Positions 48,139 through 56,250 of a stretch of DNA of 56,583 nt are shown here, piece by piece. A program made the position numbers and the translations under genes. Each line of letters opens with the position of its first letter. Within the stretch, counting starts at the first letter, position 1. Location: the NCBI GenBank assembly GCA_013388755.1, contig JACAEQ010000130.1, positions 1-56,583 of the forward strand, written 5' to 3'. This stretch comes from Chloroflexota bacterium (GTDB lineage Bacteria > Chloroflexota > Chloroflexia > Chloroflexales > Roseiflexaceae). The notes beneath the pieces were generated by a model. That model ran no database searches. It was not told the origin of the DNA and saw only the letters and a program-made list of their open reading frames with translations.

Positions 48139-51100
48139 GTGCCTCCACTCGCCGATGATCAGCGCCGCGACCTGGAAAAGGTGGTGATTGCCGCGCGCGA
48201 CCTGGCTGAGGAAGCGGCGCGCGCCGCGCTTGCGAAACTGGCCGTCGAACGTGCGGAACCCTTTGTCTCCATGGGGCCGGAGCAGCGCCGCTTGCGCAAT
48301 GCGCTCCGCGCCCATGCCCGGCGATCTGGCGGCGGCGCTGAAGGATATGCGCGTCTGGTCGAAGAGATTGCGTATATCCAGTGGCACCGTATGCTCTTCG
48401 CCCGCTTTCTGGCGGAAAATGATCTGCTGATGCACCCGGAAGGCGCGCCGCTCACCATCGAGGAGTGCGCCGATCTGGCGCGTGAAGCAGGCGAAAGCGA
48501 TGCCTGGGAACTGGCGGCGCGTTATGCGTCAACCATGCTTCCCGGCATCTTCGCGCGCCATCATCCTGCTGTGAAGGTACGCTTCGCCCCCGAAGCGCGC
48601 CAGGCGCTCGACGCCATGCTCGCCGATCTGCCACGCGACATGTTCATCGCTGATGACGCCCTCGGCTGGGTCTACCAGTTCTGGCAGGCGCGCCGTAAGA
48701 AGGACGTCAGCGCGCGCGGCGCGAAGATCGGCGCAGGTGATGTGTCGCCGGTGACCCAGCTGTTCACCGAAGATTATATGGTGCAGTTTCTGCTCCATAA
48801 CACCCTCGGCGCATGGTGGGCTGCGCGCCATCCCGTAAGCCCGCTGATCCAGGAGTTCTCCTTCCTGCGTCGCACCGCTGATGGCGTTCCAGTCGCCGGC
48901 ACGTTCCCCGGCTGGCCACAACGTGCCGCCGAGGTAACGGTGATCGATCCCTGCTGCGGTTCGGGCCATTTTCTGGTGGCGGCGTTTGAATTGCTGCGCC
49001 GGATGCGTATCGAAGAGGAAGGGTTGAGCGTCGCCGAGGCCACGGTGGCGGTGATCCGCGATAATCTGTTTGGCCTGGAGCTGGACGCGCGCTGCACCCG
49101 GATTGCGGCCTTTGCGCTGGCGTTCGCCGCCTGGAAGGCCGCCGGCTATCGTCCGTTGCCGCTGCCGAATATCGTCTGTTCGGGCATTCCCATTGCTGGT
49201 TCAATGGAGGAATGGACGCGACTGGCAGGCGACGATCTCGTCGTGCGCACGACGCTGGAACGGCTCCACGTTCTCTTCGGCAACGCGCCCCATCTCGGTA
49301 GCCTGATTAATCCGACGGATGTACCGGTGCAGGGACGCATGTTCATGGCTGATTACCGCCGGGTCGAACCATTGCTCCAGCGCGCGCTGGCTCGCGACCG
49401 CAACAGGGATGATCCGGTCGCCAGCGTTTTCGGTGTGGCGGCGGAAGGTATCGCGCGCGCCGCGCGCCTGCTATCCGGAACCTATACCCTGGTCGCTACC
49501 AATGTGCCCTACCTGGCGCGTGGTAAGCAAGACCAGATCCTCACCGCGTTCTGCGATGTTCATTACCCTGCCTCGCGCACCGATCTGGCGACGGTCTTTG
49601 TCGAGCGCTGTCGCGCGTTTACCATGCCGTGTGGCGCCTATGCGCTGGTCACGCCGCAGAACTGGCTGTTTCTACCTACCTATGAACGATTGCGGCGGCA
49701 ATTCCTTCAGCAGCAGACCTGGAACATGGTCGCGCGGCTTGGCGAGGGCGGCTTTCAGAGCAGCACGGCTGCTGGCGCGTTCACCGCGCTGCTCATCGTC
49801 ACACAATGCCCGCCCGACGAGATGCATACGTTCGCCAGCATCGAAGCTGCCGAACCGCGAACCCCGCAGGGAAAAAGCCTGGCGCTCCAGCGCAACCCGA
49901 TAACGCATGTGGTGCAGTGTGAGCAACTACGGGGTCGCCAGGCGGCGATTGCACTGGCGCGAACGACGGCAGGAGCGCCGCTTGATGCCTACGCGCGGCT
50001 CTATGAAGGGATGAAGCCCGGCCAGACGCAACGGGTGACGCGCAAGTTCTGGGAGATCGACGATTTCGAGCGCTGGTTTCTGCTCTCATCGAGCCCGTCA
50101 GGCGATGCGCCTTACAGCGGCAACAGCGAAGTCATCCTTGACCCGGCGCGCATCCAGGATCAGGGTATCAGTGAAGCAAATACTTCGGGGCGCGACGCCT
50201 GGGGCAAGCGCGGCGTCCTGATCTCAAAGATGCGCCGCCTGCCGGCAGCGCTCTACCTCGGCGCGATCTATGACAACAACACCTTTGCGATCGTGCCACA
50301 CAACGAAGATGATCTGCCGGCACTCTGGGCCTTCGTCTCTTCTGACGCATTTTCCGCTGGCGTACGCGCCATCAATCAAAAACTCGACGCGGCGCTCTCT
50401 TCGGTCGGCGCAGTACACTTCGACCGCAATCACTGGCGCGCCGTCGCCAGTTCCCAGGGCGCACTCCCTGAGCCCGCGTCGAATGACCCGACTCAATGGC
50501 TGTTCCAGGGTCATCCCGCCGGATCGACCACGCCACTGCAGGTCGCGGTCGCCCGTCTGCTCGGCTATCGCTGGCCGGCGCAGCAGGATGTTCCAGTTAT
50601 CCCGGCGCGTAACAGCCCGGAACGACGAAAGCAACTCCGTGAAGCCGCGCCGCAGTATGACAGCCTTGACCGGCTTGCTGACGCCGACGGCATCGTCTGC
50701 CTGCCGGCGATCGCGGGCGAGCGCCCGGCTCACGAGCGGCTGCGCGCCCTGCTGGCCACGGCCTGTGGCGACGGCTGGTCGGTCGCCGTACAGGACGAGC
50801 TGCTGGCCCGGGTCGGGTTCGCGGGCAAGTCGCTGGAGGCCTGGCTGCGCGATGGCTTTTTCAAGCAGCACTGCGAGCTGTTCCACAATCGCCCGTTCAT
50901 CTGGCACATCTGGGACGGCCTGCGCGACGGCTTCGCGGCCCTGGTCAACTACCACCGGCTGGACCGGGCGCGGCTGGAGAAGCTGATCTACACCTGCCTG
51001 GGGGCCTGGATCCGTGACCGGCGCGCCGAGCGCGATGCGGGAGTGCCCGGCGCGGAGGGGAAGCTGGTGGCCGCGCTGGAGCTACAGCAGAAACTCGAAG

Positions 51101-51363
51101 CCATCCTGGAGGGCGAGCCGCCCTACGATATCTATGTACGCTGGAAGCCGCTGGCGCAGCAGCCGATCGGCTGGGAGCCGGACCTCAACGACGGCGTGCG
51201 GCTCAACATCCGGCCGTTTGTGACCGCCGGGGTGCTGCGCAGCAAATTCACCATCAACTGGAACAAGGATCGCGGCACAAACCCTGACGGTAGCGAGCGG
51301 CGCAACGACCTGCACCTGAGCAGCGAGGAGAAGCGGCGGGCGAGAGCGATAGGCGATAGCTGA
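48139..51363 (+). CDS. large adenine-specific DNA methyltransferase, PglX-like (orphan)
   Basis: A 1074-aa protein. Motif I is DPCCGSGHFLVAAFELL from residue 270. Motif IV is NVPYLARGK from 455, where Pro of the usual NPPY is replaced by Val. The N-terminal region (EIAYIQWHRMLFARFLAEND) and C-terminal region (WDGLRDGFAALVNYHRLDRA, NKDRGTNPDGSERRNDLHLS) match the long PglX/Eco57I-like class of BREX, DISARM and related systems. No partner defence gene is present here. The start is GTG with AAGGAG eight bases before. The last codons lie within a heptamer repeat, so the native C-terminus may have been replaced. Confidence 0.8.
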   Translation: MPPLADDQRRDLEKVVIAARDLAEEAARAALAKLAVERAEPFVSMGPEQRRLRNALRAHARRSGGGAEGYARLVEEIAYIQWHRMLFARFLAENDLLMHPEGAPLTIEECADLAREAGESDAWELAARYASTMLPGIFARHHPAVKVRFAPEARQALDAMLADLPRDMFIADDALGWVYQFWQARRKKDVSARGAKIGAGDVSPVTQLFTEDYMVQFLLHNTLGAWWAARHPVSPLIQEFSFLRRTADGVPVAGTFPGWPQRAAEVTVIDPCCGSGHFLVAAFELLRRMRIEEEGLSVAEATVAVIRDNLFGLELDARCTRIAAFALAFAAWKAAGYRPLPLPNIVCSGIPIAGSMEEWTRLAGDDLVVRTTLERLHVLFGNAPHLGSLINPTDVPVQGRMFMADYRRVEPLLQRALARDRNRDDPVASVFGVAAEGIARAARLLSGTYTLVATNVPYLARGKQDQILTAFCDVHYPASRTDLATVFVERCRAFTMPCGAYALVTPQNWLFLPTYERLRRQFLQQQTWNMVARLGEGGFQSSTAAGAFTALLIVTQCPPDEMHTFASIEAAEPRTPQGKSLALQRNPITHVVQCEQLRGRQAAIALARTTAGAPLDAYARLYEGMKPGQTQRVTRKFWEIDDFERWFLLSSSPSGDAPYSGNSEVILDPARIQDQGISEANTSGRDAWGKRGVLISKMRRLPAALYLGAIYDNNTFAIVPHNEDDLPALWAFVSSDAFSAGVRAINQKLDAALSSVGAVHFDRNHWRAVASSQGALPEPASNDPTQWLFQGHPAGSTTPLQVAVARLLGYRWPAQQDVPVIPARNSPERRKQLREAAPQYDSLDRLADADGIVCLPAIAGERPAHERLRALLATACGDGWSVAVQDELLARVGFAGKSLEAWLRDGFFKQHCELFHNRPFIWHIWDGLRDGFAALVNYHRLDRARLEKLIYTCLGAWIRDRRAERDAGVPGAEGKLVAALELQQKLEAILEGEPPYDIYVRWKPLAQQPIGWEPDLNDGVRLNIRPFVTAGVLRSKFTINWNKDRGTNPDGSERRNDLHLSSEEKRRARAIGDS

Positions 51364-51954: not shown

Positions 51955-52030
51955 TGGCGCGGGCGGGGCGACTCGAACGCCCGGCCAACGGTTTAGAAGA
52001 CCGCTGCTCTATCCACTGAGCTACGCCCGC
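51955..52030 (-). tRNA. tRNA-Arg (UCU)
   Basis: Minus-strand cloverleaf. The acceptor GCGGGCG (from 52030) pairs with CGCCCGC, the D arm is GCTC...GAGC, and the anticodon loop CTTCTAA gives TCT (Arg). The T arm is GGGCGTTCGAGTCGCCC, then G and an encoded CCA. It borders the patch of broken defence-type genes, as tRNA genes flanking integration sites often do. Confidence 0.93.
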
Positions 52031-52573: not shown

Positions 52574-53536
52574 TCAGCCGACGAATCGAGCAAGCGCCGT
52601 TTGCAGGTCCTGGTGCGTCTGCATGGCGCGCAGGTCAACCCCAAGACTGACCAGCGTCTGGGCGACTTCCGGGCGAATGCCAATCAGTATGACCTGGGCG
52701 CCAAGTAACCGCGCTGCATGCGTCACCTCCAGGAGTCCACGCGACACGTGGGTGTCTACGACCGGGACGCCGGTGAGATCGATGAGTAAGTGCCGGGCTT
52801 TGCGTTGTTGGATTGCCGTAAGCGCCTGTTCGCGCATCTGCTGTAACCGGCTGCTGTCCAGCGCGCCGACAAGCGGCATGACCAGTGCGGTACGTGCGAC
52901 GGGAAGGATCGGGACGCTCAGTTCGCGGATTGCTTCGCGCTGCTGGGCCAGTTCCGCCAGAAGGGCGCGCTGTTCTGCCTCACGCTCCGTTACCCGAGAT
53001 AGCGCATCTTGCAACTCGGCTGTTCGCGCGGCCACCTGTTGCTCCAGGCCGGATTGAGCCTCGACCAGCGCAGTGTTTGTGCGGAGTGCCTGGTGAAGCG
53101 CCTCGTTGAGCTGGACATGGAACTGGAGCAGCAGCCAGAGGCTTATGCCCATGACCAGCAGGTTGCCGAAGATGTTCAGGATGTCGGCAACCTGCTCAGG
53201 AAGGGGATCAACGACAGTAAGATAACGTGCCGACACGGTAACGAACAGGGTGGTAGCCAGGCCGAGAAGGCCAAGGGTGCGTAAGCCACGCCCGTCAACA
53301 TAGGGCAATGCCAATGTAATTGACAGGAAAACACTGGCGACCAGTGGTGAGTACATATCGGGAAACAGCACGCCCAAAACGGCAATCAACCCCATCATTG
53401 AGATGCCGACGAGCAAACCAGGCATTGCCAGGGATGTCCGCCCGATCAAGCGACCGATGCCGATGAATATCAGTCCTTCGACTAGAATAGCGCCAACCAG
53501 AATCCAGAGAATGGGGAGAGAAAAACCAATTGCCAT
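52574..53536 (-). CDS. membrane STAS-domain (RsbR-like) protein
   Basis: A 320-aa protein with about six N-terminal membrane helices to residue 140, a coiled coil (about 150-200, LEQQVAARTAELQDALSRVT) and a C-terminal STAS domain. The STAS domain begins at about residue 205 (LSVPILPVARTALVMPLVGA, LLIDLTGVPVVDTHVSRGLL). Its layout resembles RsbR-type stressosome proteins, with Thr in VVDTHV where a phosphorylation site is expected, but it is a membrane form. The frame stays open for 57 codons upstream of the ATG at 53536, including another hydrophobic stretch (TWLIGISFSTAVIYGL), so the true start may be an upstream non-ATG codon. Confidence 0.8.
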   Translation of the reverse strand: MAIGFSLPILWILVGAILVEGLIFIGIGRLIGRTSLAMPGLLVGISMMGLIAVLGVLFPDMYSPLVASVFLSITLALPYVDGRGLRTLGLLGLATTLFVTVSARYLTVVDPLPEQVADILNIFGNLLVMGISLWLLLQFHVQLNEALHQALRTNTALVEAQSGLEQQVAARTAELQDALSRVTEREAEQRALLAELAQQREAIRELSVPILPVARTALVMPLVGALDSSRLQQMREQALTAIQQRKARHLLIDLTGVPVVDTHVSRGLLEVTHAARLLGAQVILIGIRPEVAQTLVSLGVDLRAMQTHQDLQTALARFVG

Positions 53537-54825: not shown

Positions 54826-56250
54826 ATGAAGATCTATCGCAACCATATCGGCGGAACCTGGATGGAATCGCTGGCGCGCCGGCACGTGCCAAACAACAAT
54901 CCCGCCGACACGCGCGACATTGTTGGCGAGGTACCGCTCTCAACGGCCGACGAGGCGACTGCCGCCGTTGAAGTTGCCGCCCATGCCTTCCTTGCCTGGC
55001 GTCGTGTTCCTGTGCCAGAACGTGGCGCGATCATTGCGCGTGTGGCACTCCTGCTGGCGGCGCGTGCCGATCACGTGGCGTGCGCGCTTACGCGCGAGCA
55101 GGGCAAGATCCTGGCCGAGGCGCGTGCCGAAGTGCAACGCGCCGTTCGTTACGCCGAGCAGTGCGCCGCCATGGCTACCTCTTCCAGTGGCGTTACGGTT
55201 CCACACCGTACCGTCGAATGTCTCGGCTATACCACACGCCGCCCGGCCGGCGTCGTAGCCTTGCTGGCCTCGTGGGCAATGCCGGTGGCTCAGCCGCTCC
55301 TGCACCTGGCAGCGGCACTGGCAGCCGGTAATACGGTGGTGCTGAAGCCGGATCTGCGCACGCCGGAAACGGCTGAAATGCTGGTGCAGTGCTTCGTTGA
55401 CGCTGGCGCACCCTCTGGTGTCGTGAATCTGGTGCATGGCGCGGATGACGAGGTCGCCGCAACATTGATCGACCACCCTGTGGTGCGCATTGTAACCTTC
55501 AGTGGCGCACGCGCCGGCGCCGTGGCAGTGCAACGCCGTGCCGCCGCGCGCGGCGTTCGCGTGCTGTGTGAGAGTGACAGCGCCAATCCGGTGGTCGTTC
55601 TGGAAGATGCCGATCTTGACCGTGCGCTGGCAGCGGTACTGGCCGGCGCCTATGGCAATGCCGGCCAGTCGATCACGGCTACGAAGCGTGTCGTGCTGCT
55701 GCACCCGGTCGCGGACGCGTTTCTTGAGGCCCTTGTGGCGCGTGCCGGCGCATTGCGCCTGGGCAGCGGTCTGGATGAAGGTGTCACGATGGGTCCGTGC
55801 ATTGATGAGGCGCAGCTGCAGCAGGCGCTCGCCAGCGTGCGCAACGCGCAGGAAAAGGGCGCCGAATTGCTCTGCGGTGGTACGCGGGTCGTTGATGGGC
55901 CGCTGGCGAATGGCTTCTTTCTCCGCCCGACCGTGCTCGATCGCGTCCAACCGGAGATGCGTGTCGTCCATACGCCAGCCCCTGGCCCGGTCCTGGCGGT
56001 GACGCGCGTCGAGAGCTTCGCCGAGGTGGTTGCGCTCGTTAATCAGCCGCCCGGCAGCACCGTGGCCGGTGTCCATACCCGCGACGGCGCGCGCATGTTC
56101 CGCTCCATCGATGCCATTGACGCCGTTGCCGTTGCCGTCAACGCGCCTACGACGATTGATGACCTGGCATCACCACCAGTTGAGTTCCTGCTCGATTTCT
56201 TCAGCGCGACGCGCACCGTCTCGATTGATTATGGCGAGTCGCGCTTCTGA
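54826..56250 (+). CDS. aldehyde dehydrogenase homologue lacking catalytic Cys
   Basis: A 474-aa ALDH-superfamily protein with the overall order intact: NNNPADTRDIVG, ALTREQGKIL, AAGNTVVLKP (NAD-binding Lys174), CES (Glu249 at the general-base position), and VVLEDADLDRA. The nucleophile motif GQ-x-C-x-A reads GQSITA, so the Cys is Ile283. The oxyanion Asn of W-N-x-P is Ala151 (SWAMP). Both changes should abolish normal ALDH activity. The rest is not decayed. It may have a binding or regulatory role or a changed chemistry. The ATG at 54826 is preferred. Confidence 0.85.
   Translation: MKIYRNHIGGTWMESLARRHVPNNNPADTRDIVGEVPLSTADEATAAVEVAAHAFLAWRRVPVPERGAIIARVALLLAARADHVACALTREQGKILAEARAEVQRAVRYAEQCAAMATSSSGVTVPHRTVECLGYTTRRPAGVVALLASWAMPVAQPLLHLAAALAAGNTVVLKPDLRTPETAEMLVQCFVDAGAPSGVVNLVHGADDEVAATLIDHPVVRIVTFSGARAGAVAVQRRAAARGVRVLCESDSANPVVVLEDADLDRALAAVLAGAYGNAGQSITATKRVVLLHPVADAFLEALVARAGALRLGSGLDEGVTMGPCIDEAQLQQALASVRNAQEKGAELLCGGTRVVDGPLANGFFLRPTVLDRVQPEMRVVHTPAPGPVLAVTRVESFAEVVALVNQPPGSTVAGVHTRDGARMFRSIDAIDAVAVAVNAPTTIDDLASPPVEFLLDFFSATRTVSIDYGESRF

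What the first reader, a model, noticed from the sequence alone, without database searches (positions are those of the whole stretch)
54826..56250. Aldehyde dehydrogenase that has lost both nucleophile and oxyanion residues
Seen directly: GQSITA in place of GQ-x-C-x-A (Cys to Ile) and SWAMP in place of W-N-x-P (Asn to Ala), in an otherwise full-length, uninterrupted ORF with Lys174 and Glu249 retained. Established: the Cys thiol is essential for ALDH catalysis and the Asn stabilises the oxyanion. Paired loss with an intact frame argues for a retained non-enzymatic role or different chemistry rather than decay.
Basis: partly seen in the sequence, partly recalled or inferred. Interest (0 to 1): 0.62.

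Follow-up and report, generated by a model that had tools for sequence, protein, structure and literature searches.

The report
Conserved catalytically dead aldehyde dehydrogenase
A gene that looks like an aldehyde-oxidising enzyme has lost essentially its whole active site, yet at least seven related bacterial species have kept it intact for a long time, so the protein is probably doing a job other than catalysis.

Summary
In detail: window 54826-56250 (+) encodes a 474-aa ALDH-fold protein with GQSITA (Cys to Ile) and SWAMP (Asn to Ala). Orthologues in six genomes of a sister genus (60-63% identity) are dead too, but with different residues (His/Tyr for Cys, Trp for Asn). More distant orthologues (45-51%) keep Cys, Asn and the loop; several lie next to a class-III aminotransferase gene that is missing from every genome with a dead copy. 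dN/dS within the sister genus is 0.11-0.18, against 0.05-0.14 for intact flanking genes and 0.02-0.03 for an active ALDH paralogue. Former active-site columns drifted independently in the two genera (3 of 24 changed columns agree, against 56 of 99 ordinary ones). This fits a pseudoenzyme under fold-level selection, not new chemistry and not decay. Its non-catalytic task is inferred, not shown. ALDH pseudoenzymes are known (ALDH16A1; second AldDH of GRM1 microcompartments), so this is a new lineage of a known kind.

The parts
54826..56250 (+). ALDH-superfamily pseudoenzyme gene, 474 aa
   Evidence: orthologues
55273..55284 (+). Former oxyanion motif, Trp150-Ala151-Met152-Pro153 (W-N-x-P in active enzymes); Asn lost
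55345..55347 (+). Lys174 codon (cofactor-contact Lys192 of mammalian ALDH numbering), retained in all seven dead copies and in G006
55570..55581 (+). Glu249-Ser-Asp-Ser: general-base Glu retained, the following Gly-Gly of E-L-G-G lost
55663..55680 (+). G-Q-S-I-T-A, former nucleophile segment; Ile283 in place of the catalytic Cys
55972..55989 (+). T-P-A-P-G-P in place of E-E-I-F-G-P; nicotinamide-contact Glu (Pro384) and Phe (Pro386) lost
56158..56178 (+). Approximate site of the deletion of the C-terminal PFGGxKxTGxG loop
54092..54637 (+). Upstream macro-domain gene; relatives are also found upstream of the ALDH in several related genomes with dead or active copies (positional anchor, not shown to be functionally linked)

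Best explanation
The gene encodes a pseudoenzyme. The common ancestor of this genus and its sister genus (g4, probably Roseiflexus) carried a KGSADH-like aldehyde dehydrogenase that in related genera lies next to a class-III aminotransferase. The aminotransferase was lost and the ALDH lost its catalytic apparatus, including deletion of the loop that lines the substrate tunnel (shown: presence and absence of the parts, one well-supported clade on a long stem branch; the order of the two losses is not known). Since then the open frame and fold core have been under purifying selection while the old active-site columns drifted freely (shown: dN/dS and column analysis). The protein therefore most likely works without catalysis, as a binding or scaffold protein (inferred). 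The segments best conserved between the genera are residues 91-105, the Rossmann-core region 166-210 with Lys174, and 256-300. The segments that by homology correspond to the ALDH dimer helix and oligomerisation strands are among the least conserved, so a simple 'dead subunit in a mixed ALDH tetramer' is not the favoured form of this role (inferred).
For: Six g4 genomes with 60-63% identical, uninterrupted orthologues, all without Cys, Asn, Gly-Gly, EIFGP Glu/Phe and the loop. Dead clade 100/100 with stem branch 0.56, nested among active members. dN/dS within g4: pseudo-ALDH 0.11-0.18 (NG86), flanking macro-domain 0.05-0.10, SirB1-like 0.10-0.14, metallophosphoesterase 0.09-0.11, active KGSADH paralogue 0.02-0.03, all in g4 genome pairs. 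Neutral simulation gives on average 5-11 stop codons where none is seen. 48 of 84 comparable near-invariant columns are kept in the window protein and all five full-length g4 copies. Ex-catalytic columns changed in both genera agree in 3 of 24 cases against 56 of 99 ordinary changed columns, Fisher p = 8e-5. The aminotransferase is found in the genomes with the active orthologue and not in G000, the six g4 genomes or G006, with no remnant at the locus. At least six other ALDH genes of this genome keep Cys, Asn and E-x-GG.
Against: No function is demonstrated and no partner gene is specific to the dead state. The upstream region is barely conserved and no consensus promoter was found, so expression is untested. 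Constraint is about five times weaker than on an active ALDH. Selection was measured mainly within g4; only one genome of the window's own genus is held, and its NG86 dS against g4 is 1.07-1.75. Glu249 is kept in all dead g1/g4 copies, which a purely structural role does not obviously require.
Confidence: 0.66

Rival explanations
1. Slow decay: after loss of the aminotransferase the ALDH became dispensable and is drifting to a pseudogene; the intact frame is residual.
For: Constraint is about five times weaker than on active ALDH; long stem branch; active-site columns unconstrained.
Against: Seven uninterrupted frames across two genera (one cut by a contig end); dN/dS 0.11-0.18, similar to intact neighbours; neutral simulation never gives zero stops; structural invariants kept.
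Confidence: 0.14
2. New chemistry: the pocket was rebuilt for a different reaction using the retained Glu249 and Lys174.
For: Glu249 and Lys174 kept in all seven copies; ex-catalytic columns are partly conserved within g4 (0.73 identity).
Against: Pocket residues differ between the two genera (3 of 24 agree) and vary within g4 (His/Tyr at the nucleophile position); nicotinamide contacts and substrate-tunnel loop lost.
Confidence: 0.1
3. Regulatory or stabilising subunit that co-assembles with an active ALDH paralogue of the same cell (such as the KGSADH on contig C61), as inactive ALDH2 subunits do in mixed tetramers (PMC10211241).
For: ALDH fold retained; active paralogues present; precedent for inactive ALDH subunits acting in heterotetramers.
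Against: Segments corresponding by homology to the dimer helix (226-240, 28% between genera) and to the oligomerisation strands (121-135, 51%; 451-465, 45%) are below the average conservation; no genetic linkage to an active ALDH was seen.
Confidence: 0.1

Closest known systems
Active KGSADH-like ALDH orthologues in related genera (g3, g6, g8, g9)
   Same: Shared phylogenetic group (100/100 against the outgroup), 45-51% identity; in several of them shared macro-domain and SirB1-like neighbours
   Different: They have Cys, Asn, E-x-GG and the PFGG loop; several lie next to a class-III aminotransferase
ALDH16A1 (human pseudoenzyme)
   Same: ALDH-fold protein lacking catalytic residues, retained with a proposed binding role (PMC10650815, PMC8160307)
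   Different: ALDH16 proteins are described as having an additional C-terminal ALDH-like domain, and ALDH16A1 as lacking all catalytic residues; the window protein is single-domain, keeps Glu and Lys, and has a deleted loop. No sequence comparison was made here
Second AldDH of GRM1 bacterial microcompartment loci
   Same: Bacterial ALDH with Cys replaced (Ser or Pro), proposed scaffold or regulator (PMC4207490)
   Different: Encoded in a microcompartment locus beside an active AldDH; none of the neighbours identified here is a microcompartment gene
G006 (genus g7) orthologue
   Same: Same flanking genes, no aminotransferase, Cys lost (Ala)
   Different: Keeps Asn; loses Glu (to Asn); loop present but degenerate (LFDD); relationship to the g1/g4 loss unresolved

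Membership tests
ALDH superfamily (PF00171) | Significant match to the family profile | tested here: met
   2.7e-116, 389 bits against a cut-off of 23; the Foldseek hits shown are ALDH-superfamily structures, on a model of mean pLDDT 72
Catalytically active ALDH | Catalytic Cys in GQ-x-C | tested here: not met
   Ile283
Catalytically active ALDH | Oxyanion Asn in W-N-x-P | tested here: not met
   Ala151
Catalytically active ALDH | General-base Glu of E-L-G-G | tested here: met
   Glu249 retained, but the Gly-Gly is lost
Catalytically active ALDH | Nicotinamide contacts Glu/Phe in EIFGP and the PFGG loop | tested here: not met
   Pro384, Pro386; loop deleted
alpha-ketoglutaric semialdehyde dehydrogenase (NF042993) | Curated equivalog score of 770 bits | tested here: not met
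   373 bits; the active orthologue of g8 scores 598, also below
Pseudoenzyme (fold kept, catalytic motif lost, gene retained) | Loss of catalytic motif with purifying selection on the gene | tested here: met
Pseudoenzyme | Protein expressed, inactive, with a non-catalytic function | not testable with these tools
   needs protein and cells

The most novel reading that the evidence does not exclude
The active ALDH of this locus already had a second, non-catalytic job in the ancestor, and each time a lineage lost the aminotransferase (g1/g4, and separately g7) the enzyme was stripped of catalysis while that second job kept the protein: a repeated, naturally replicated conversion of an enzyme into a pseudoenzyme driven by pathway loss.
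Probability: 0.2. Interest if true: 0.65.

Novelty: new variant of a known kind. Interest (0 to 1): 0.42.

Why it matters
Bacterial ALDH pseudoenzymes appear little documented: the literature searches here turned up only the GRM1 microcompartment case. This one sits in a clade with orthologues in three states (active, often with an aminotransferase; dead with the loop deleted; dead by other lesions), so when and why an enzyme stops catalysing but is kept can be followed. It is also a caution for annotation: profile searches call it an aldehyde dehydrogenase, and it would be counted in pathway reconstructions although it cannot carry out the reaction by the known mechanism.

Tried and rejected
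Recent null allele or sequencing error: rejected, seven independent assemblies share the loss. Replacement Cys near the old position: none seen in the alignment; Cys248, Cys325 and Cys350 are also found in some active orthologues. Aminotransferase remnant at the locus: none by tblastn. A genome-contig scan with the single sequence gave only 28-32% ALDHs and no named close relatives. Species order from rpoB: g1 and g4 lie close together, but the places of g7 and of the partial g6 sequence are weakly supported; the ALDH tree joins G006 to the dead clade at only 68/75, so one or two inactivation events cannot be told apart. Structure: AlphaFold with a four-sequence alignment gave pLDDT 72, with the lowest confidence in the former active-site segments, residues 119-139 and the C-terminus; too shallow to read the pocket. 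Promoter and Rfam scans gave nothing at the gene. The search for Roseiflexus with aldehyde dehydrogenase returned ten papers, none of whose titles or abstracts concerns this gene.

Full report
What is there. The ORF at 54826-56250 (+) is intact, 474 aa, and matches PF00171 at 2.7e-116, ending at profile position 430 of 461. Against 30 Cys-bearing ALDHs (orthologues, KGSADH-like relatives and paralogues), 88 columns are near-invariant. The window protein has lost 35 of them, full-length active members of its own group 0-2. Losses include Gly251-Gly252, the Glu and Phe of EIFGP (Pro384, Pro386), residues of the FTGSxxxG turn, and the PFGGxKxTGxG loop, which is deleted.

Relatives. The window lies in a 5.08-Mb genome (G000). 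All six g4 genomes have an uninterrupted orthologue at 60-63% identity (that of G019 cut by a contig end), all with the catalytic set lost but with other residues: His or Tyr for Cys, Trp for Asn, Ile/Met/Arg-Asp for Gly-Gly, Pro or Ala for the EIFGP Glu. Genera g3, g6, g8 and g9 have orthologues at 45-51% identity with Cys, Asn, Gly-Gly and the loop. G006 (g7) has lost Cys (Ala) and Glu (Asn) but keeps Asn. The window protein and the g4 proteins form one clade (100/100) on a stem of 0.56 changes per column. A sample of 300 genomes of the phylum showed no close relative outside the family at E <= 1e-100 except one at 41%, with an intact Cys.

Locus. A macro-domain gene lies upstream in the window, in several g4 genomes, in g7 and in several g8 genomes; a SirB1-like (Transglut_core2) gene lies downstream in g4, g7 and most g8 loci read (the window ends before it). 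In g8, g3 and g9 loci a class-III aminotransferase (PF00202) lies just upstream of or near the active ALDH. It is absent at E <= 1e-100 from G000, all six g4 genomes and G006, and no remnant was found at the locus. Two genera (g2, g5) have the aminotransferase with no such ALDH beside it, so the pair is not obligatory.

Selection. In g4 genome pairs NG86 dN/dS is 0.11-0.18 for the dead ALDH (0.11-0.16 on the recomputed set), 0.05-0.10 for the macro gene, 0.10-0.14 for the SirB1-like gene, 0.09-0.11 for the metallophosphoesterase, and 0.02-0.03 for the active KGSADH paralogue (its rows for G017 and G015 picked up the pseudo-ALDH instead and are not used). Active orthologues of close g8 genomes give 0.02-0.04. 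Neutral simulation gives on average 5-11 stops over comparable divergence, never zero; none is seen. The gene is under purifying selection, weaker than on a working ALDH. The estimate rests on g4; with a single g1 genome the window's own branch is covered only through the comparison with g4, where dS is above 1.

Pocket versus fold. Where both genera have changed an ex-invariant column they agree in 3 of 24 cases; for ordinary columns where both left the active repertoire they agree in 56 of 99 (Fisher p = 8e-5). 48 of 84 comparable ex-invariant columns are kept in the window protein and the five full-length g4 copies. So the fold core is held and the old pocket is free, which argues against a new shared chemistry. 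Best conserved between genera are 91-105, 166-210 and 256-300. The region corresponding by homology to the dimer helix (226-240, 28%) and the oligomerisation segments are poorly conserved, which makes a mixed ALDH tetramer less likely; this mapping rests on family knowledge, not on a structure examined here. The AlphaFold model (pLDDT 72, four sequences) finds ALDHs as its nearest solved structures but is too weak to describe the pocket.

Comparison. Human ALDH16A1 is described as a pseudoenzyme lacking the catalytic residues (PMC10650815, PMC8160307). In GRM1 microcompartment loci a second AldDH has Ser or Pro for Cys and was proposed to be a scaffold or regulator (PMC4207490). Inactive ALDH2 subunits can act on active ones in heterotetramers (PMC10211241). 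The window protein is the same kind of thing, in a new lineage, with a deleted loop and a link to the absence of an aminotransferase. Not every reading is closed: function is not shown, expression is untested, and one versus two inactivation events (g1/g4 and g7) cannot be separated.

Noticed in passing
window 2751, 19827 (-), 31898, 56498: Dispersed repeat CATTGCGAGCGNNNGCGAAGCAATCT, 42 exact copies in the genome against 0 for the reversed control pattern.
   Followed up: partly
L047:1985-2073 (genome G017): Two 28-nt near-identical repeats (CGC[T/G]ACACCCGTGAGCACGGGGGATGAG, start-to-start spacing 61) resembling CRISPR repeats, in the gap between the macro gene and the dead ALDH.
   Followed up: no
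window 48139-51363 (+): 1074-aa protein with MmeI/Eco57I-type DNA methyltransferase matches, possibly a restriction-modification gene.
   Followed up: no
window 52574-53536 (-): 320-aa STAS-domain protein with a hydrophobic N-terminal part.
   Followed up: no
window 51958-52030 (-): tRNA gene (Rfam RF00005).
   Followed up: no
L021:1501-2955 (genome G006): A second dead ALDH state: Cys to Ala and Glu to Asn but Asn kept, with the aminotransferase also missing and a patatin-like ORF (my reading of the translation, L052:8669-9703) between the macro gene and the ALDH; it may be an independent inactivation.
   Followed up: partly
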